Source: Candidatus Hinthialibacter antarcticus (GTDB lineage Bacteria > Hinthialibacterota > Hinthialibacteria > Hinthialibacterales > Hinthialibacteraceae). Taken from it: a stretch of DNA of 64,000 nt. Below, one piece after another: positions 11,661 through 58,798 of this stretch; the first letter of the stretch is position 1; each line of letters starts with the position of its first letter. The stretch is from assembly GCA_030765645.1 (NCBI GenBank), contig JAVCCE010000004.1, positions 1 through 64,000 of the forward strand, in the 5' to 3' direction. The notes beneath the pieces are model-generated. The model searched no databases. It saw only the letters and a list, made by a program, of their open reading frames with translations, and was not told the DNA's origin. A program made the translations under genes and the position numbers.

Positions 11661-11679
11661 ATTGAAACCAAACGTATTG

Positions 11680-12492
11680 ATGAAGTTTAAAACCACGCAA
11701 CCATTCGCCGCCTGCGTCGCGGTCGCGCTCGTGTGCAGTTGCGCGACGACCGATCTGTTGGGCAATTTTAATCTGATTTCGCCCAATGAAGAAACCAAAC
11801 TGGGGCGCGACCTCGCCGGGCAGATCGCGACGGAGAAAGAGATCGTCGAAGACCCTGACGTGCGGGGATACATCAACAATATCGGGACGAAACTGGTCGA
11901 GGCTTCGACCAACCCCAACGGCCCCTACACTTTTCTTGTCGTGAAAGACGAGACCGTAAATGCGTTTGCGATTCCCGGCGGCTATTTGTATGTGCAGACC
12001 GGCTTGATTTCTGCAGCGGAGAGCGAAGCCGAAATCGCCGCCGTCATGGCGCATGAATTAGGGCACGCCGAGCAACGCCACCCCACCGAAAGCCTGTCGC
12101 GGCAAATGGGCGCGAAAATGGTCATGGACATCGTGTTGGGCAAAGACGCTGGCCAATATAAACAGCAGGCCGCGAACCTGCTGATGGCGGGCGGCATCAG
12201 CGCCTACAGCCGCAGCGCCGAGCTGCAAGCCGATGAAATTGCGGTCTATGTATTAAACCGCGCGGGCTACGACCCCAATGCAATGGTGAGTTTCTTCGAG
12301 AAACTGGTTGCGCTCGAACAACAAGCAGGCGCAAGCGGCGGCATGACGTTGTTCGCGTCGCACCCGCCAACGCAAGAGCGCATCAACGCCGCCAAAAATC
12401 TCATTGCATCCTTTGGCGCGGTGCGCAGCGACAGCGAGCAACTGGTCGGCGGATTTGAAAACATACAGAATAAAGTGAAACAGTTGCATTAA
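11680..12492 (+). CDS. M48 family zinc metalloprotease lipoprotein
   Basis: 270 residues. Residues 1-21 are a lipoprotein signal (V-C-S-C, lipidated Cys21). The zinc-binding HELGH lies at residues 125-129, and the third ligand Glu lies in the downstream SAELQADEIA segment near residue 185. Position and size match the periplasmic M48 proteases of the LoiP/BepA class, which degrade or help assemble outer-membrane proteins. A C-terminal TPR domain as in full BepA is missing. The start is uncertain: a TTG at 11662 in frame adds six residues and neither has an obvious ribosome site; the ATG gives the more typical signal peptide. It probably forms an envelope-maintenance operon with the DUF1318 lipoprotein before it. 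Confidence 0.88.
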   Translation: MKFKTTQPFAACVAVALVCSCATTDLLGNFNLISPNEETKLGRDLAGQIATEKEIVEDPDVRGYINNIGTKLVEASTNPNGPYTFLVVKDETVNAFAIPGGYLYVQTGLISAAESEAEIAAVMAHELGHAEQRHPTESLSRQMGAKMVMDIVLGKDAGQYKQQAANLLMAGGISAYSRSAELQADEIAVYVLNRAGYDPNAMVSFFEKLVALEQQAGASGGMTLFASHPPTQERINAAKNLIASFGAVRSDSEQLVGGFENIQNKVKQLH

Positions 12493-12501
12493 TGATTACT
12501 T

Positions 12502-12588
12502 AATAGGCGTGGGCGCATCTCTCTTCGCTTCCGTGCGGGCTATCAGGCCCTATACACAGGAGATCACAGAGACGCACCCACGCCTATT
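12502..12588. repeat. 87-nt structured dispersed element, copy 1
   Basis: A 21-base outer arm at 12502-12522 pairs with 12568-12588 with only two imperfect positions, both of which become G-U pairs on the minus strand. The core holds GTGCGGGCTATCAGGCCC with an inner GGGC/GCCC hairpin. It sits between the convergent ends of the M48 protease and DUF4097 genes and could also act as a transcription barrier there. Confidence 0.85.
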
Positions 12589-12632
12589 ATATTTCTTGCC
12601 ACTCCAACAAAAAGCATCAAGAGATTCGCTGC

Positions 12633-13859
12633 TTATCGCCGTTCCTCATTAAATAAAATGTGCAACGGCGCGTAGCTGCTGCTGGCTGTGATTTTCCCTT
12701 TTCCGTCGCCGAGTTCGCCTTCGGCTTTTTCGCTAAACATTTCTTTCTTCTTCTTTAGCGAATCAGGCACTTTTACGTCGCCGAATGAGGCCGCCGCTTC
12801 GATGCGTCCCGCGAAGTCTTTTTGAATATAGATTTTGCCTTCGCCAAACGAAAATGAACCTTCAAAATTCGGGGTGGAATTATTCAAATACACTTTGGAC
12901 TTTCCATAACTGGCCTTGACGCTTAACGGGTAACCGAATGCGCTGCGCACTTTCAATTCACCAAAACTGCAATGGATTTTCGCAGGGCCGTCATGTCCGC
13001 TGACATTCAATGGCCCAAACTGCGCGAAGACGCCAAGGTCATTCGCTGTGTCTACGATTCTGGTCGCGCCAAACTGATTGCGGCATTCAATTTTCGCTTT
13101 GATCTCTTTGATCGCCAGGTCTCCAAACTGATTGTCAATCGAAAGCGGTGTGTTCACCGGGACAGTAATTTTTCCGCTCGTATGAAAGAAGGAATTCTTA
13201 TATTCTTTCTCGTCCTTCTTATCTAATTCGACCGTTACTTCTACTCCTTTTGAAGTCTGCTCTGCGGTCAGTTTGATTTTCCCCAGCAGTTCTTTCGCAA
13301 GGGCTTTGGTTTCGCCTCCGGCAGAACATTCAAGTTGCATGGAGATTTCGCCCGCATCGCCCGGTTCAATTTGAAACGATCCAAATTGCGATTTGATAAT
13401 CAAGGGCGTTTCAGGTTTTACTTGAAAGCGTTTATCAATCGTAACCGATTCGACTTTGCCTTTGAAATCTTTTTGTATTCCAAACTTGCTTTCGGTGTTG
13501 TATTCAAAATCAATTTCATCTAAATCAAAATCGAGGTCCAGGTCGAGATCAAAATCTTCCAATTGCACGATGGCTTCACGGAGTTTGTGTTTGATATGCG
13601 GAAGTTCTTTTTTGAGTTCAACGCGTACCTTGTCCATCTCTTTGTGGACGCGCTTCATCTCTTTTTGCACTTCTTTCATTTCTTTCTGAACAACAACGGC
13701 TTCGTCTTTCGCTTCTTGCAATTCAATTTCTATTTCGTCGTTTGTTGATTCAATGACGGCCTCTTCGTCTTCATCCAAAGCGAAGCCGACTGGGGTTGCG
13801 TAAAATGACAAGCAAGCAAACAGAGCAAGAATTGAGAGTAGGTTCCAAAAGCGTTTCAT
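12633..13859 (-). CDS. exported DUF4097-type (adhesin-like repeat) protein with N-terminal coiled coil
   Basis: 408 residues from the ATG at 13859, preceded by AGGAGA. The first 27 residues form a signal peptide (hydrophobic stretch then a small-residue site before DEDEEA). A highly charged helical region follows (repeated KEMKEVQKEM, KEMDKVR patterns), which should form a coiled coil. The rest is made of short beta repeats: SIDNQFGDLAIKE, CRNQFGATRI, AQFGPLNVSG, CSFGELKV, ASYGKSKV, FSFGEGKI, ASFGDVKV. This matches the DUF4097 single-stranded helix fold. Function is unknown for the family, but such genes often follow an ECF sigma/anti-sigma pair, as here, 25 bp after the anti-sigma gene. It is probably a member of that regulon or a membrane-side sensor part. 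Confidence 0.75.
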   Translation of the reverse strand: MKRFWNLLSILALFACLSFYATPVGFALDEDEEAVIESTNDEIEIELQEAKDEAVVVQKEMKEVQKEMKRVHKEMDKVRVELKKELPHIKHKLREAIVQLEDFDLDLDLDFDLDEIDFEYNTESKFGIQKDFKGKVESVTIDKRFQVKPETPLIIKSQFGSFQIEPGDAGEISMQLECSAGGETKALAKELLGKIKLTAEQTSKGVEVTVELDKKDEKEYKNSFFHTSGKITVPVNTPLSIDNQFGDLAIKEIKAKIECRNQFGATRIVDTANDLGVFAQFGPLNVSGHDGPAKIHCSFGELKVRSAFGYPLSVKASYGKSKVYLNNSTPNFEGSFSFGEGKIYIQKDFAGRIEAAASFGDVKVPDSLKKKKEMFSEKAEGELGDGKGKITASSSYAPLHILFNEERR

Positions 13860-13884
13860 CTTGGTTTCTCCTAAATAAGCCTGA

Positions 13885-14544
13885 TTAGATGGCGCCCTGC
13901 GGCGCGGTTTGTATGGCGGTAAAATCAAAATCGGGTATGCCCTCAGAGGTTTTGATATATTCGTTCAACGATTGCAATACGGTGATGTTGTTGGCGACCG
14001 CCAGCGCAAGTCCGCGCTCGATGACCGGGTCGTTGGGGCGTTTGTCGTAGAGCGCCGCCATCTGCAGCGTGGCGCCTTTGAGTTTGGCGATGGGCGCGCT
14101 CCACGGCGTCAACTCGCCAGCGGCCAGTTGGTAATTGCGGTCAATACTGGCTTCGAGTTCCGCGATGAGTTGCACCTGTTTCTCCAAAAGCAGCGGGAAC
14201 GGCTGCTTGAGTTGCGCATTCGGCTGAAACCAAACGCCCAATCCGAAAGCGACCAAGGCGACCACCGCCAACACGCCAGCCCGGGCAGCGTGATAAACCC
14301 AGCGCGAGGGCGTTCGACGCGGCGCGTTCAGGCATCTGGCGGCTAAATCGTCAGGCGGCTGCGGCGCAGGAACGTGAGCCAGCGCTTGATAGTTCGCTTC
14401 GATTTGTTGCATCTCGTCGCGTAGTTCATCACTCGCGGCGAGTTGCGCTTCGAAGGCTTCGCGTTCGGTTTGCGGCATGGCGTCGGTCTTGCCGTGTTTG
14501 GCCTCGACGTAGAGATAGAGATTTTGGCGGAGTTCATCGTTCAT
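13885..14544 (-). CDS. probable anti-sigma factor, single membrane span
   Basis: 219 residues. The N-terminal cytoplasmic part is helical and acidic (MNDELRQNLYLYVEA, then EREAFEAQLAASDELRDEM), the layout of anti-sigma domains. One hydrophobic segment near residues 85-106 (AGVLAVVALVAFGLGVWF) is the only membrane span, and a periplasmic domain of about 110 residues follows. The zinc-binding H-x3-C-x2-C motif of ZAS-type anti-sigma factors is not seen, so assignment rests on context: its ATG overlaps the stop of the ECF sigma gene by ATGA at 14541-14544. It would hold that sigma factor at the membrane until a signal outside releases it. Confidence 0.65.
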   Translation of the reverse strand: MNDELRQNLYLYVEAKHGKTDAMPQTEREAFEAQLAASDELRDEMQQIEANYQALAHVPAPQPPDDLAARCLNAPRRTPSRWVYHAARAGVLAVVALVAFGLGVWFQPNAQLKQPFPLLLEKQVQLIAELEASIDRNYQLAAGELTPWSAPIAKLKGATLQMAALYDKRPNDPVIERGLALAVANNITVLQSLNEYIKTSEGIPDFDFTAIQTAPQGAI

Positions 14545-27840: not shown

Positions 27841-27947
27841 CCCTTCTCCCTCTGGGAGAAGGTTAGGATGAGGGGGCGGCCTCGCCGCCTATTGAAAACC
27901 TCAATGAATAAAAACCCTCACCCCAGCCCTCTCCCAGAGGGAGAGGG
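27841..27947. repeat. paired CCCTCTCCC/GGGAGAGGG palindromic repeats
   Basis: Two imperfect palindromes (27841-27862 and 27927-27947) of the type CCCTCTCCCnGAGGGAGAGGG flank a short spacer. Related units occur at 42014-42035, 53622-53642 and 58361-58380. Such repeats are widespread intergenic elements in many bacterial genomes and carry no protein. Confidence 0.7.
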
Positions 27948-27979
27948 AGACTACGTTCACGTTTCACTGGAGCCGCGCC

Positions 27980-29083: not shown

Positions 29084-30553
29084 ATGTACGCCCGATTCAA
29101 CGTCACTCTCAGCCTTATCGCTTTTATCTGCGCCTTCGCTGTCTCCAGCCAGTCGCAAACCTGGCAACCGCTGTTTGACGGCGCAACCCTCAACGGTTGG
29201 ACCGCCGCCGAGAACCCGGCGTCATTTCGGGTAGAAGACGGCGCCATCGTCTGCAACGGCCCCCGCGCCCACTTGTTCTATACCGGCGACGTCGAAAACG
29301 CCGACTTTACCAATTTTGAACTGCGCCTCGAATGGAAAACCGAAACCGGCGCGAATTCCGGCGTATTTTTTCACACCGCGTTTCAAGACAAAGGCTGGCC
29401 CGCACAAGGCTACGAGGCGCAGGTCAACAACACTCATCGCGGCTCAGGCGAATATATTGAGCGAAAAAAAACCGGCAGTCTCTATTCGGTGCGCAACCAA
29501 TACCTGCAAATCGCCAACGACTATGAGTGGAACACCATGCGCATTGTGGTGAGAGGCAAGCGCATCCAGATGTTTGTTAATGATGAAAAAACCGTCGATT
29601 ACACCGAACCCGCCCAACCCGGGCGCAGCGAAAATCGTGAAGCCCGCCTACTCAGCCACGGGACCTTCGCGCTGCAATGTCACGATCCCGAAAGCAAAGC
29701 CTACTTCCGCCGTATCGTCGTCAAGCCGTTGGCGAAACCCATCGGCGGCTCGCCAACCGCCCCGTTAGACGAAATCGACATGCAAATCGTCCAGTTGCAT
29801 AACGCGAACTTCCCTGTGGTTGACTATCACGTCCACCTCAAAGGCGGTTTGACCTTGCAGGAAGCGCTCGAAAATTCGTTCCGGGTTGGGATCAATTACG
29901 GCATCGCGGTCAATTGCGGGCTTGGCTTCCCCGTGCAGGATGACGCAGGCGCGTTGGCGTTTTTATCCCAGTTCAAACACCAGCCCGCTTTCACCGCCAT
30001 CCAAGCCGAAGGCCGCGAATGGACGACGCTGGTCTCGCCCGAAACCGTCGCGCAATTTGACTACGTGTTTTCAGACGCACTCACCTGGACCGACCACAAA
30101 GGCCGCCGCATGCGCCTATGGATGCCCGACGAAGTCTTCGTCGATGACGAACAGCAATTCATGGACATGTACGTCGACCGCATCGTCGAGATCATCTCAT
30201 CGGAACCGATTGACATCTTCGTTAACCCCACCTTCCTGCCCGAAGTAATCGCCGCCAAGTACGACGCGCTCTGGACGCCCGCGCGTATGCAACGCGTGAT
30301 TGACGCAGCGGTGAAACACGGCGTCGCCATCGAAATCAACGCCCGTTTCAAAATCCCCAGCGCGGCCTTTATCAAACAAGCCAAACAATCGGGCTGTACA
30401 TTTTCGTTTGGAACCAACAACGGCGACGCGGAATTAGGCCGCATGGAATATTGCTTGAAAATAGTTAACGAATGCAAACTGGTTGCAGAAGATATGTTTG
30501 AACCGAAACCCGACGGTCAAAAGCCGATTCAAGTCAAAGGCTTCAAAAAATAG
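29084..30553 (+). CDS. exported DUF1080 (3-keto-disaccharide hydrolase) / amidohydrolase-like fusion
   Basis: 489 residues. A signal peptide ends near residue 24. Residues about 27-215 form the DUF1080 lectin-like jelly roll (QPLFDGATLNGWTA, FELRLEWKTETGANSGVFF, YEAQVNNTHRGSGEY, DEKTVDYTEP), a domain named 3-keto-disaccharide hydrolase and common in secreted sugar-processing proteins. Residues about 245-475 form a second domain that begins VVDYHVHLKGGL and ends with an EINARFKIPS and SFGTNNGDAELG pattern, which resembles a PHP or metal-dependent amidohydrolase barrel. The H-V-H motif supports metal binding. Most DUF1080 proteins lack this tail. It lies 51 bp after the nucleoside hydrolase and may act on products of it. 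Confidence 0.75.
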   Translation: MYARFNVTLSLIAFICAFAVSSQSQTWQPLFDGATLNGWTAAENPASFRVEDGAIVCNGPRAHLFYTGDVENADFTNFELRLEWKTETGANSGVFFHTAFQDKGWPAQGYEAQVNNTHRGSGEYIERKKTGSLYSVRNQYLQIANDYEWNTMRIVVRGKRIQMFVNDEKTVDYTEPAQPGRSENREARLLSHGTFALQCHDPESKAYFRRIVVKPLAKPIGGSPTAPLDEIDMQIVQLHNANFPVVDYHVHLKGGLTLQEALENSFRVGINYGIAVNCGLGFPVQDDAGALAFLSQFKHQPAFTAIQAEGREWTTLVSPETVAQFDYVFSDALTWTDHKGRRMRLWMPDEVFVDDEQQFMDMYVDRIVEIISSEPIDIFVNPTFLPEVIAAKYDALWTPARMQRVIDAAVKHGVAIEINARFKIPSAAFIKQAKQSGCTFSFGTNNGDAELGRMEYCLKIVNECKLVAEDMFEPKPDGQKPIQVKGFKK

Positions 30554-30575: not shown

Positions 30576-30662
30576 GCCCGGCCAGGGTACGCCTCTCTTC
30601 GCTTCAGTGCGGGCTATCAGGCCCTATGCACAGGCGCTCACAGAGACGCCCCCTGGCCGGAC
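30576..30662. repeat. 87-nt structured dispersed element, copy 2
   Basis: Same length and core as the copy at 12502, with GCTTCAGTGCGGGCTATCAG in the centre. The outer arms (30576-30596 and 30642-30662) have a different sequence that still pairs, with at least five positions changed on both sides in a compensatory way relative to copy 1. Confidence 0.85.
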
Positions 30663-30979: not shown

Positions 30980-33052
30980 ATGAAAACCAGTCGTAAACCG
31001 TCAAAATTTTTCAACCGCGAGATCAGTTGGGTCGATTTCAACGAACGCGTTCTGCACGAAGCGCTCGACAGCCGAACCCCCACGCTGGAACGCTTGAAAT
31101 TTATCGCAATTTTTTCTTCCAACCTCGATGAATTCTTCATGAAGCGCATCGGTGGATTAAAACGTCAGCTCTCCGCCGGCATCACCAAGCGCTCGCCTGA
31201 CGGCCTCACGCCCCATGACCAACTCGACATTTTACGCGAACGCACCATCGACCAGGTCTGCCGTCAACGTGAATGCCTTTTGAATGATATTTTGCCGTCG
31301 CTTGAAAAACATGGCGTCAAGATTCTGCGTTTTGACCAGCTCACAAGCCAACAAAAGCGCAAAGTCAATCACGAATATAAAAAATCCATCTTCCCCATCC
31401 TGATTCCATTGGGCGTCGGGCCGGGGCAGCCGTTTCCATTCATCAGCAACATGAGCTTATCCATCGCGGTGCGGCTGCGGCCTCCAGGAAGCCAGGAAGT
31501 CGGTTTCGCCCGCGTAAAAATCCCCACCAACCGTCCGCGTTGGCTGCCGACAGGCGTCCCCAATGTGTTCGTGCCGATTGAAGAAGTGATCGCGGCCAAT
31601 TTGGCGGGCCTGTTCCCCGGCGTCAAAATCATTGAGCAGTGCTCGTTTCGCGTCACCCGCAGCGTCGACATCGACCGCAAAGAAGACGAGGCCGATGACC
31701 TTCTTGAGTTGATCGAAGAAGAATTGATGCACCGGGAGTTCGCCCAGGCGGTGCGGCTTGAGCTCGACCGCTCCTGCTCGCCCGCGATGCAGCGCATTCT
31801 CACGGAGCACATGAAATTACAACCCGACGACGTCTACGTCGTTGACGGGCCGCTCAGCCTGCGCGACCTGATGGCGTTGGGAAAACTCGATTACCCGGAA
31901 CTGAAAGACCCCGCGTGGAAAGGGCCGACCCACCCCGCGATTTTACGCAATGACCTCAGCGACGAACCGCGTTCTTTTTTCTCGCTGATTCGTGAACGCG
32001 ACATCATGGTCCATCACCCCTATGAGTCGTTCAACACCAGCGTATTGCGCTTTTTAGAAGAAGCCAGCAACGATAAGCGCGTGTTGGCCATTAAGCAGAC
32101 CCTCTACCGCACCGCTGACGACTCGCCCATCATCAAGGCGCTCAAACGCGCCGCCGCCAATGGAAAACAGGTAGCGGTGTTAATCGAAATCAAGGCGCGT
32201 TTTGATGAAGCGGCCAACATCCAGTGGGTGCGCACCCTCGAAGACGCCGGCGTACACGTCACCTATGGCTTCGTCGGGCTGAAAACGCACACCAAGACGC
32301 TATTGGTCGTGCGCGAAGAAGCCGATTGCATGAGGCGCTACGTCCACATCGGCACCGGAAACTACCACCCCGGCACCGCCAACCTCTACACCGACTACAG
32401 CCTGCTCAGCTGCCGCGATGAACTCGGCGAAGATATTTCCGACCTGTTCAACACTCTCACCGGATATTCAAGGCAAACCGAATACCGCAAATTATTGATC
32501 GCGCCGGCCAACATGCGCAAAAAATTCGAGCGCATGATCCAGCGTGAAATGAACCACGCAAAAAAAGGCAAACCCGCCCGCATCATCGCCAAGATGAATT
32601 CACTCGAAGACATCCAAATGATCGAGTGGATGTACAAAGCCTCCAAAGCAGGCGTTAAAATCGACCTGCTGGTGCGCGGCATCTGCTGTCTCAAGCCCGG
32701 CGTCGAAGGCCTCAGCGAAAACATTCGCGTCATCAGCGTTATCGGGCGTTTTCTTGAGCATTCGCGGGTTTTCTATTTCCAAAACGGCGGTAAAGAAGAA
32801 GTCTACATTGGCTCAGCAGACTGGATGCGCCGCAACCTCGACTTCCGCTATGAAGCGATTGCGCCGATCGAAGACGCCGAACTCAAAAAGGAATTGCTGG
32901 ACACTCTCGAGCTGTTTTGGAAAGACAACCGCAAATGCTGGGACCTGCATCCCGACGGGACCTACACCCAGCGCACTCCCGGCAACGAGAAAGAACTCTG
33001 CACTCACACCATCTTAATGGAACGCGTACTCGCAAACAGCAAATTATCCTAA
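30980..33052 (+). CDS. ppk1: polyphosphate kinase 1
   Basis: 690 residues, full length. Ppk1 reversibly moves the terminal phosphate of ATP onto inorganic polyphosphate through a phosphohistidine and acts at the inner face of the membrane. The N-terminal domain begins FFNREISWVDFNERVL. Two phospholipase-D-like domains follow; the first ends with VKTHTK-like KTHTKTLLVVR and YVHIGTGNYHPGTANLYTD, which holds the autophosphorylated His region, and the second contains EHSRVFYF and the GSADWMRRNLDFR block. No ppx gene is adjacent. Start is supported by homologue-like beginning and an extended -10 promoter nearby. Confidence 0.97.
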   Translation: MKTSRKPSKFFNREISWVDFNERVLHEALDSRTPTLERLKFIAIFSSNLDEFFMKRIGGLKRQLSAGITKRSPDGLTPHDQLDILRERTIDQVCRQRECLLNDILPSLEKHGVKILRFDQLTSQQKRKVNHEYKKSIFPILIPLGVGPGQPFPFISNMSLSIAVRLRPPGSQEVGFARVKIPTNRPRWLPTGVPNVFVPIEEVIAANLAGLFPGVKIIEQCSFRVTRSVDIDRKEDEADDLLELIEEELMHREFAQAVRLELDRSCSPAMQRILTEHMKLQPDDVYVVDGPLSLRDLMALGKLDYPELKDPAWKGPTHPAILRNDLSDEPRSFFSLIRERDIMVHHPYESFNTSVLRFLEEASNDKRVLAIKQTLYRTADDSPIIKALKRAAANGKQVAVLIEIKARFDEAANIQWVRTLEDAGVHVTYGFVGLKTHTKTLLVVREEADCMRRYVHIGTGNYHPGTANLYTDYSLLSCRDELGEDISDLFNTLTGYSRQTEYRKLLIAPANMRKKFERMIQREMNHAKKGKPARIIAKMNSLEDIQMIEWMYKASKAGVKIDLLVRGICCLKPGVEGLSENIRVISVIGRFLEHSRVFYFQNGGKEEVYIGSADWMRRNLDFRYEAIAPIEDAELKKELLDTLELFWKDNRKCWDLHPDGTYTQRTPGNEKELCTHTILMERVLANSKLS

Positions 33053-36157: not shown

Positions 36158-36772
36158 ATGGTCTATCCACACTGGAGAATTATACAAATCGGCTCACTCA
36201 GCCGCAACCCATACTGGGGCGAAGATTCGGCCAAGCGAAAGCCGCTATGCACAATTACCCTGCTCGAAACCGCTGACAATATCATCTTGATTGACCCGGG
36301 GTTCGAGTCGCCAGAATGTACGCGCACTCTATTGAACCGCCGCAGCGGATTGCTGCCGGAGCAAATCGACGCCGTCTTGCTGACGCACTTTCACCCGACC
36401 CATTATCAAGAGTTACGGGCGTTCCCCAACGCGACCTGGCTGATGCCGCGACTCGAAATCCGCGCCGCGCTCAACGCGCCCCATCCGGCGCCGTTTGTAG
36501 AGCAAATTGAACCCTTTGAAGACCATTCGCTGCCAGGCGTCGAGTTGTTGCCTGCGCCGGGGCATACCCACGGTTCGAGCGCCTATTTGTTTGAAACCCG
36601 CGACGGCGCTGTTGCGGTAGCGGGCGACGCCATCCTCACCTTCGACCACTTCGAAAACCGCGACCCGGGCGACGGCTGCGAAGGCCGCCCCGAGGCGCGC
36701 AACTCCATCGACCAGATCGCCAAGGTAGCAGACGTCATCGTTCCAGGGCACGATAATTATTTCATCTTATGA
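36158..36772 (+). CDS. metallo-beta-lactamase-fold hydrolase
   Basis: 204 residues from the ATG at 36158; an upstream in-frame ATG at 36107 has no ribosome site and adds a basic extension. MBL-fold marks are the early strand-turn IILIDPGFES, the metal site THFHPTHYQEL, the later His in PAPGHTHGSSAYLF and GDAILTF, and a terminal VPGHDNYF. The metal motif reads H-x-H-x-T-H where most enzymes have H-x-H-x-D-H, so the second metal site or its base may be altered. The substrate is unknown. Its stop codon overlaps a degraded copy of the start of the downstream FGE-like gene, part of a 115-bp duplication. Confidence 0.78.
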   Translation: MVYPHWRIIQIGSLSRNPYWGEDSAKRKPLCTITLLETADNIILIDPGFESPECTRTLLNRRSGLLPEQIDAVLLTHFHPTHYQELRAFPNATWLMPRLEIRAALNAPHPAPFVEQIEPFEDHSLPGVELLPAPGHTHGSSAYLFETRDGAVAVAGDAILTFDHFENRDPGDGCEGRPEARNSIDQIAKVADVIVPGHDNYFIL

Positions 36773-36856
36773 GTAAGGACGCACTCAAATTGACGCCGAC
36801 TTGTTTTAACATATCCATTATCATTTTTCTATCGTTTTTTTTTGGGAAGTTGCGGC
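36741..36856 (+). repeat. left copy of the direct repeat flanking the HEPN gene
   Basis: These 116 bases match 37626-37740 at roughly four of five positions. The unit contains the last codons of the MBL gene and the first 25 or so codons of the FGE-like gene; in this left copy the second frame runs M-S-K-D-A-L-K-L and then ends at a TAG after about 32 codons, so it is a remnant. Confidence 0.85.
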
Positions 36857-37625: not shown

Positions 37626-37740
37626 TTCCAGAGCATGATAATTATTTCATTTTATGAGTAAGGACGCATTCAAATTGAGGCCAACCTATTTTAATACATC
37701 GCTATTCATTTTGCTATTGGTTTTTTCATGGGGATGCGGC
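37626..37740 (+). repeat. right copy of the direct repeat flanking the HEPN gene
   Basis: Contains a remnant of the MBL C terminus (frame P-E-H-D-N-Y-F-I-L then stop) whose TGA overlaps the ATG of the intact FGE-like gene. This shows that the MBL and FGE-like genes were once joined by an ATGA overlap. Confidence 0.85.
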
Positions 37741-41462: not shown

Positions 41463-41670
41463 TGGATATTCTCCCTCCAACTTGAACGCATCCCACAACG
41501 CGTTCAGAAAACGGCGAATGATTCATTAGCGATAGTCTATTGGCCAAATAAACTTTACTTACTTGATCTATAACGAAAGGATTGGGGGACTTATTGAGGA
41601 TAAAGTGAATTTTTTTGGTTCTTCCGAAAACTGGGTGCTTTTTTATAAATTGAATTGAGATTTCGCTGCA

Positions 41671-41756
41671 TGCGGTATGGGTGCAACTCTGCTCGCTTCA
41701 GTGCGGGCTTTCAGGCCCTTTTGCACAGGCGCTTCCAGAGTTGCACCCATGCCTGA
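41671..41756. repeat. structured dispersed element, copy 3
   Basis: Outer arms TGGGTGCAACTCTG and CAGAGTTGCACCCA pair, with the core GCTTCAGTGCGGGCTTTCAG between them. Relative to copy 1 a T-A pair in the arm has become A-T. Homology to copy 4 (44060) runs on for about 40 bases past the right arm, so these two share a more recent duplication. Confidence 0.85.
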
Positions 41757-42120
41757 ATTGGTTTGTCAATTTTGGACAGGCCGGAATACGTTTTCGTAAA
41801 CAAAATTATGGCTATCCATCAATACTAGGTACTCAATTACCAGAGGAACCATTTTTTTATTAAATTGGAGAGGGGTGGCAACGAGAACACTTGAGGCGTT
41901 ACCTGAAATCCCCCCGGCGTCTTCGACGCCACTACCCTTAGGGGACTTCACGGTATAAACCATCTGACCGTCTGTACATTCACCAGCGATTCATAAATAA
42001 AAACCTCCCTCACCCCAGCCCTCTCCCAGTGGGAGAGGGAGCAGGCTTTCGGTATTATCCGGCTCACCAGGAGCCTGCCTGCCGCAGGCAGGGTTCGCCC
42101 TCCCATTATTTCTATCCAGC

Positions 42121-42159
42121 AGAAAGCCCGCACTAAAGCGAGAAGAGACGTACCCAAGA
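42121..42159 (-). repeat. half copy of the structured element, inverted
   Basis: Reads, on the minus strand, as the left arm and left core only (GGGTACGTCTCTTCTCGC, then GTGCGGGCTTTCT). The right half is missing, so it cannot fold like the full copies. It lies about 70 bp upstream of tgt. Confidence 0.65.
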
Positions 42160-44006: not shown

Positions 44007-44059
44007 ATCAAATCGAGTATTTAGAAGCATCTCAAAAATACTTGAACTCCGCTGCGTTT

Positions 44060-44139
44060 GGCATGTGTACAACTCTGCTCGCTTCAGTGCGGGCTTTCAG
44101 GCCCTTTTGCACAGGCGCTCCCAGAGTTGCACCCATGCC
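44060..44139. repeat. structured dispersed element, copy 4
   Basis: Arms GGCATGTGTACAACTCTG and CAGAGTTGCACCCATGCC with the same core as copy 3. It has two imperfect positions in the arm. It lies between the convergent DinB-like gene and the A+T-rich island. Confidence 0.85.
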
Positions 44140-44212
44140 TGATTGGTTTGCCAATTTGTGAAATGCCGGAGTTTAATTTGCTCGGCAGGAGCCTCGCCCT
44201 CCCCAAAAAACA

Positions 44213-58333: not shown

Positions 58334-58580
58334 AAACGAACTCAACTTACAAAACCTGCTCCCTCTCCTACTGGGAGAGGGTTGGGGAGAGGGTTAATAA
58401 ATTGCGCTTGTCGCAAGGCGGGTTAAAACCCACCATGCATTCGTGTCATCGCGAGCGCACCATTTAATTCACTGAAAACCAGGGCGCAGCACGCTGCGCC
58501 CGAATCCCCCCTGGCGTTTTCAGCGCCTACCCCCCTTATTAAGGGGGGTAGGGGGGATCAACAATTGAGAGCATGTCTCA

Positions 58581-58616
58581 ATAGCCCGCACCGACGCGAA
58601 AAGAGATGCACCCAAG
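58581..58616 (-). repeat. half copy of the structured element, inverted
   Basis: On the minus strand it reads GGGTGCATCTCTTTTCGCG followed by a GTGCGGGCTAT hairpin half. Only the left arm and left core are present, as at 42121. Confidence 0.6.
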
Positions 58617-58798
58617 CCGATGCTATTCTACGATTCAATACCACACGCTTAAGTATAAACCCGAACCGCCTCCACGGAATCAGCCGCAGCTCATTCAATC
58701 TTAAATTATTCAATCGAGCGTAACGAAACTCCGGTTCATCCGTTAGCCTTTGGGCGAATATGGCTGACGGATAGGCTCCCTGAATTCACAACGGGATA

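What the first reader, a model, noticed from the sequence alone, without database searches (positions are those of the whole stretch)
12502..12588. A dispersed 87-nt element whose outer stem is conserved by compensatory changes
Four full copies (12502-12588, 30576-30662, 41671-41756, 44060-44139) share a core (CGCTTC, GTGCGGGC, TCAGGCCC) but have different outer arms. Aligning copies 1 and 2, at least five positions of the 21-base arm change on both strands so that pairing is kept (for example G-C to C-G, T-A to A-T, A-T to C-G); copy 3 adds another T-A to A-T swap. Copies 1 and 2 have exactly the same length. Selection on an RNA or cruciform shape, rather than on sequence, is the simplest reading. 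I do not recognise the family.
Basis: seen in the sequence. Interest (0 to 1): 0.8.

Follow-up and report, generated by a model that had tools for sequence, protein, structure and literature searches.

The report
Dispersed DNA hairpin with paired arms
About 300 copies of a small hairpin-shaped DNA repeat are scattered through this one bacterial genome; the free-standing copies sit just after genes and keep their two arms matched to each other even where the arm sequence differs at every site, while most other copies ride inside a miniature transposon.

Summary
The four copies belong to a family of about 300 (157 full copies in the 2.69 Mb read). The family was not found in the other 13 genomes held of the phylum. 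Among 34 free-standing copies, the six best of 3916 column pairs under a tree-aware covariation null are all outer-stem pairs; two are significant (8-81, 3-86). Three things change the reading. (1) There are two populations. Window copies 1 and 2 are free-standing. Copy 3 is the centre of a 234-bp MITE with ISL3-type ends and an 8-bp target duplication, and copy 4 lies in a remnant of a related element. (2) The core is conserved by sequence. Only the outer stem varies while staying paired, and in free-standing copies the pairing continues 2-7 bp into otherwise unique flanking DNA (mean 2.74 bp against 0.81 by chance). (3) G-U and A-C mismatches are equally rare, so nothing points to selection on one RNA strand. 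Free-standing copies lie at gene 3' ends (none of 34 between divergent genes). Best reading: a REP-like DNA hairpin element, one lineage of which was captured by MITEs. It lacks the REP tag and a cognate RAYT. The flank pairing is the unexplained part.

The parts
12502..12588 (+). Free-standing copy 1: conserved hairpin 12506-12584; AATA (12502-12505) pairs with TATT (12585-12588) outside it
   Evidence: 10 bp after the stop of the M48 peptidase gene (11662-12492 +), facing a convergent ORF (12633-13928 -)
30576..30662 (+). Free-standing copy 2: conserved hairpin 30580-30658; two extra C-G pairs outside it
   Evidence: 22 bp after the stop of a 3-keto-disaccharide hydrolase gene (29084-30553 +), upstream of polyphosphate kinase (30980-33052 +)
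41671..41756 (+). Copy 3, subfamily II hairpin, centre of a MITE
41617..41850 (+). 234-bp ISL3-type MITE carrying copy 3 (ends GGTTCTTCCG / ...GAGGAACC)
   Evidence: 41 complete relatives in 2.69 Mb; right ends of sampled MITEs 79-94% identical to the end of a resident ISL3-family IS
41609..41616 (.). Left target-site duplication ATTTTTTT
41851..41858 (.). Right target-site duplication ATTTTTTT
44060..44139 (+). Copy 4, subfamily II hairpin
44023..44171 (+). Remnant of a MITE-like element around copy 4 (left AGAAGCATCTCAAAAATACTTGA; right TGATTGGTTTGCCAATTTGTGAAATGCCGGAG)
42122..42158 (-). Half copy: 5' arm only, ending at the apical loop
   Evidence: 21.3 bits
58577..58620 (-). Half copy: 5' arm only, ending at the apical loop
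   Evidence: 28.4 bits

Best explanation
This is a lineage-specific dispersed DNA hairpin element of about 80-87 nt that works like a REP/BIME palindromic unit. Shown: a sequence-conserved core (CTCT/AGAG, CGCTT/AGGCG and GTGC/GCAC helices with a GGGC/GCCC tip) on an 8-bp or longer outer stem whose sequence varies but stays Watson-Crick paired, separated from the core by an imperfect internal loop. Shown: about 70 free-standing copies per genome close to gene 3' ends, and about 190 copies carried in two related MITE families, one with ISL3 ends and 8-bp target duplications. Inferred: the free-standing form is the older one. It is spread or maintained because a DNA-acting factor recognises the folded hairpin, and at gene ends it is tolerated or used as a hairpin or terminator between transcription units. 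One lineage was captured by ISL3-type MITEs and amplified by their transposase. The exact Watson-Crick match of the outer arms, running into unique flanks, is probably made at DNA level (template-switch copying of one arm from the other, or insertion into palindromic sites) rather than by RNA selection.
For: About 300 copies and none found in 13 other genomes of the phylum. The top six of 3916 column pairs are stem pairs, two significant under a phylogenetic null; all measures exceed 500/500 shuffles. Core differs by 4.8% against 20-40% elsewhere within the same copies. Pairing extends into unique flanks: 2.74 bp against 0.81 (sd 0.14), with 20 G-C pairs against 5.3 expected; two GTAG-type and GGGTGGC-type REP families of the same genome do not show it. 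G-U is as rare as A-C. Free-standing copies: 0/34 divergent (p 5e-5), 18/34 convergent (p 4e-4), median 29 nt from the nearest gene end; MITE-borne copies follow background. MITEs: 12 of 41 perfect 8-bp duplications against 6 or fewer at any other length, ends shared with an ISL3-family IS.
Against: No enzyme that moves the free-standing form was identified: the genome's three Y1 transposase genes are each flanked by other REP families. No empty site was found, so neither insertion nor boundaries are proved for free-standing copies. Template switching alone should also repair the internal-loop mismatches, yet these persist and are not repaired together, and arm extension does not rise with core divergence. 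Gene calls are my own simple ORF/hexamer calls.
Confidence: 0.6

Rival explanations
1. A structured RNA element (3'-UTR motif or intrinsic terminator) selected at each locus; the MITE captured one copy.
For: Free-standing copies lie downstream of genes, median 29 nt from the nearest 3' end, none divergent. T is enriched in the 8 nt after the stem, 0.42 against 0.24 background. Core sequence conserved, loop free, outer stem covarying.
Against: G-U and A-C mismatches equal (8 against 7; 20 against 22), and orientation with tandem genes 10 against 6. The left flank is not A-rich as a two-way terminator would need. No Rfam family. The terminator scan of 12400-12750 does not flag copy 1.
Confidence: 0.2
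2. The free-standing element inserts at the centre of short palindromes (4-14 bp), so paired flanks are the split target and carry no selection.
For: Joined flanks form loopless palindromes (TCAA/TTGA, AGTA/TACT, ACGA/TCGT, GTAATTT/AAATTAC) far beyond chance. Only about 6% of intergenic positions have two or more such pairs. Extension is independent of divergence.
Against: Does not explain covariation inside the element at 8-81, 9-80 and 16-73. No empty site found.
Confidence: 0.15
3. Purely neutral homogenisation of inverted-repeat arms by replication template switching; no constraint on shape.
For: Watson-Crick exactness without G-U, and extension into flanks decaying with distance. The process is documented for hairpins (PMC8794818) and quasipalindromes (PMC7202029). 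In one tandem pair (C75:46914 and 47084) the left arm differs at three bases, all matching the shared right arm.
Against: Mismatches at 13-17 persist in most copies and are not corrected together. Other hairpin repeats of the genome show no extension. The core is constrained in sequence.
Confidence: 0.2
4. All copies are only IS ends or MITE relics.
For: About 99 of 136 in-register copies have MITE flanks, 41 with both ISL3-type ends; window copy 3 is one.
Against: 31-34 free-standing copies have no MITE flanks, show different arms and flank pairing, and a different genomic placement. In MITEs the hairpin is internal, not an end.
Confidence: 0.08

Closest known systems
REP / BIME palindromic units
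   Same: High-copy intergenic palindromes, placed between convergent and unidirectional genes, with complementary stem variants (PMC3733652, PMC2817692)
   Different: About 80-87 nt against 20-40 nt; no GTAG or CGTC tag; no RAYT gene flanked by it; stem continues into unique flanks
REPIN (REP doublet hairpin)
   Same: Mobile hairpin of similar length in which compensatory changes are common (PMC3116915)
   Different: REPINs have conserved ends and a variable spacer; here the middle is conserved and the ends vary
ISL3-type MITEs
   Same: Copy 3 and 40 others: ISL3-like ends, AT-rich 8-bp duplications, ends shared with a resident ISL3-family IS; an ISL3-family transposon with 8-bp duplication is described in PMC9782665
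   Different: The hairpin is an internal cargo; free-standing copies lack these ends
ERIC/IRU-type enterobacterial repeats
   Same: Intergenic palindromic repeats of about 100 bp, called MITE-like (PMC2759123)
   Different: No sequence relation tested; ERIC size and target duplication recalled from memory
Intrinsic terminators
   Same: Hairpin just after stop codons, T-enriched 3' flank
   Different: Sequence-conserved core, about 20-bp interrupted stem, T tract absent in many copies

Membership tests
REP (RAYT-associated) | Unpaired GTAG or CGTC tag at one end | tested here: not met
   No conserved bases outside the stem in free-standing copies
REP (RAYT-associated) | Flanks a RAYT gene in inverted orientation | tested here: not met
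   Three Y1_Tnp genes, each flanked by a different REP family; one lies near two copies but has its own REPs inside them
REP (RAYT-associated) | Length 20-40 bp | tested here: not met
   79-87 nt
REP (RAYT-associated) | High copy number, intergenic, downstream of genes | tested here: met
REPIN | Two conserved inverted REPs with a variable spacer | tested here: not met
   Core conserved, ends variable
ISL3-type MITE (copy 3 and relatives) | Terminal inverted repeats shared with an ISL3-family IS | tested here: met
   Ends GGTTC(T/A)TCCG; right 48-56 bp 79-94% identical to an IS end next to a PF01610 transposase
ISL3-type MITE (copy 3 and relatives) | 8-bp target-site duplication | tested here: met
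   12 of 41 perfect at 8 bp, 6 or fewer at other lengths
ISL3-type MITE (free-standing copies 1, 2) | ISL3-type ends around the hairpin | tested here: not met
Rfam structured RNA | Covariance-model match at the gathering score | tested here: not met
Structured RNA in general | G-U tolerated on one strand in covarying helices | tested here: not met
   8 against 7 and 20 against 22
Structured RNA in general | A transcript | not testable with these tools
   No expression data
Integron attC site | RYYYAAC/GTTRRRY boxes and a cassette array | not tested
   Dispersed single copies; boxes not seen by eye

The most novel reading that the evidence does not exclude
The free-standing element is moved or maintained by a process that leaves each copy with its own site-specific arms: it either enters at the centre of palindromes without target duplication, or copies one flank onto the other through its hairpin. 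The stem would then be a record of the insertion or repair event, a mode not described for REP elements as far as I know.
Probability: 0.3. Interest if true: 0.7.

Novelty: new variant of a known kind. Interest (0 to 1): 0.45.

Why it matters
Compensatory changes are usually taken as proof of selection on an RNA. Here a dispersed DNA repeat shows strong, exactly Watson-Crick covariation that runs into unique flanks without any RNA-strand signature. It is therefore a test case for separating selection on structure from DNA-level arm copying or palindromic insertion. It also shows a hairpin repeat captured and amplified by a MITE within one genome.

Tried and rejected
RAYT mobilisation: one Y1 gene lies about 350 bp from two tandem copies, but all three Y1 genes carry other REP families as direct flanks. 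Known RNA family: nothing at gathering score; weak permissive hits are microRNA models matching any long stem. Known protein repeat: translated core, no Pfam match. My memory of a similar repeat in Rhodopirellula was not supported: an exact pattern scan of the species genomes gave five hits in sequences without the surrounding hairpin, judged chance. Relatives: none in 60 genomes by DNA nor in 13 phylum members by covariance model; none in viral contigs or plasmids. Empty sites: none; MITEs without a hairpin prove to be hairpin deletions with arm remnants. Block repair of the internal loop: no overdispersion. Age dependence of arm extension: none.

Full report
Observation. The four copies exist where stated and fold as stated; each predicted DNA fold beats 200 shuffles. 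Copies 1 and 2 differ by five paired double changes in the arms. Copies 3 and 4 are near copies of each other, flanks included.

Family size and spread. A covariance model from 32 copies (A1, R1) matched 150 of 150 scored candidates in the own genome. In 2.69 Mb read in full contigs or large stretches there are 157 full copies, about 300 per genome. The model found none in the other 13 genomes held of the phylum (only 150 candidates per genome were scored) and the DNA query none in 60 relatives. Exact core patterns gave only chance hits in species genomes and none in viral contigs.

Two populations. Base 22 of the alignment splits the copies. Subfamily II is mostly embedded in repeats. Type A is 160-320 bp with ends GGTTCTTCCG...CGGATGAACC, an AT-rich 8-bp target duplication (12 of 41 perfect; at most 6 at any other length) and right ends 79-94% identical to the end of an ISL3-family IS whose transposase fragments (PF01610) are in the assembly. 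Type B has GAAGCCATCTCAAAA / TTTTGAGATGGCTTC ends. Copy 3 is a complete type A element (41617-41850, duplication ATTTTTTT); copy 4 is a remnant. Subfamily I, with window copies 1 and 2, is mostly free-standing. About 99 of 136 in-register copies have MITE flanks and 37 do not.

Covariation. On 34 free-standing copies I ran an R-scape-like test: G-test with APC, null from substitutions re-placed on a FastTree tree. The six best of 3916 column pairs are all outer-stem pairs; 8-81 (E 4e-5; G-C 17, T-A 13, A-T 2, C-G 2) and 3-86 (E 0.005) are significant. The independent pair count on 28 copies agrees: 93% paired cells against 83% shuffled, 78 double-change cells against 27, 0 of 500 shuffles as high, slid controls 28-54% paired. 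With all copies only 8-81 stays significant, because the subfamily split dominates.

What is conserved. Between free-standing copies the core helices differ by 4.8%, the outer arm by 20%, the apical loop by 29% and the internal loop (13-17 with 72-76) by 40%. In MITE-borne copies the figures are 4.6, 6.6, 10 and 19%. So the free-standing copies look older or freer outside the core, while the core is held by sequence. The internal loop keeps its mismatches, such as A-C at 14-75, and is not repaired as a block.

Flank pairing. In free-standing copies the stem runs on into DNA that is unique to each site: mean 2.74 bp against 0.81 (sd 0.14) when left and right flanks are exchanged between copies, with 20 G-C pairs in the first three positions against 5.3 expected, so it is not just an A tract facing a T tract. 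MITE-borne copies barely show it (0.97 against 0.78), and two REP families of the same genome do not show it. This excess is the most unusual feature.

Strand and place. G-U and A-C mismatches in the stem are equal (8 against 7; 20 against 22), so neither strand behaves as the selected RNA. Free-standing copies avoid divergent regions (0 of 34, background 26% by length), favour convergent ones (18 of 34, background 24%) and lie a median 29 nt from the nearest gene 3' end; MITE-borne copies follow background. T is enriched 3' of the stem (0.42), with no matching A enrichment 5' of it. Gene calls were made with a simple ORF and hexamer score.

Mechanism. Placement and compensatory stems resemble REP/BIME units (PMC3733652, PMC2817692) and REPINs, for which compensatory changes are reported as common (PMC3116915). 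Membership fails on the tag, the length and the RAYT association. I therefore file it as working like a REP unit, not as one. That the free-standing form came first and a hairpin-acting factor moves or binds it is inference. For the arms I favour a DNA-level cause: template switching can both create and maintain exact stems (PMC8794818), and one tandem pair shows three left-arm differences all matching the shared right arm. Palindromic insertion remains open, and selection for a terminator is possible.

Limits. One unnamed draft genome, about half of it read; no strain comparison; no transcript data; contig ends often lie in MITEs, so the parent IS is incomplete; the tree-aware test is my own implementation.

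Noticed in passing
L036 1284-1955, L037 1319-2074, L038 1217-2041: Three Y1 (RAYT-like) transposase genes, each flanked by its own REP family (GGGTGGCAAGGGC..., GTAGGGTGGGTTCTTAACCCACC, GGGGAGGGCGAACCTCC...); the open frame in L038 is shorter than the other two and looks frame-shifted.
   Followed up: partly
C11:221030-221247, C63:74867-75093, C11:277098, C1:169482: An element with ends reading CAATGACATT/AATGTCATTG interrupts or abuts several hairpin copies, which suggests another mobile element that prefers them as targets.
   Followed up: no
window 42122-42158 and 58577-58620; C15:4752, C11:5406, C66:132400: Half copies that end at the apical loop, as if the hairpin had been cut at its tip.
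   Followed up: no
C4:67270-67410 (same contig, beyond the window); C21:54118-54204: MITEs that have lost the hairpin but keep arm remnants: deletion derivatives rather than empty sites.
   Followed up: partly
starts of contigs C7, C16, C20, C52, C62, C65, C69, C74: Contigs begin inside MITE copies, so near-identical recent copies break the assembly.
   Followed up: no
window 36741-36841 and 37626-37726: A 101-nt direct repeat, 83% identical, 885 bp apart.
   Followed up: no
window 27915-27949 and 42007-42041: A 35-nt GC-rich palindromic repeat (CCCTCACCCCAGCCCTCTCCCAG...GGGAGAGGGAG), another dispersed repeat.
   Followed up: no
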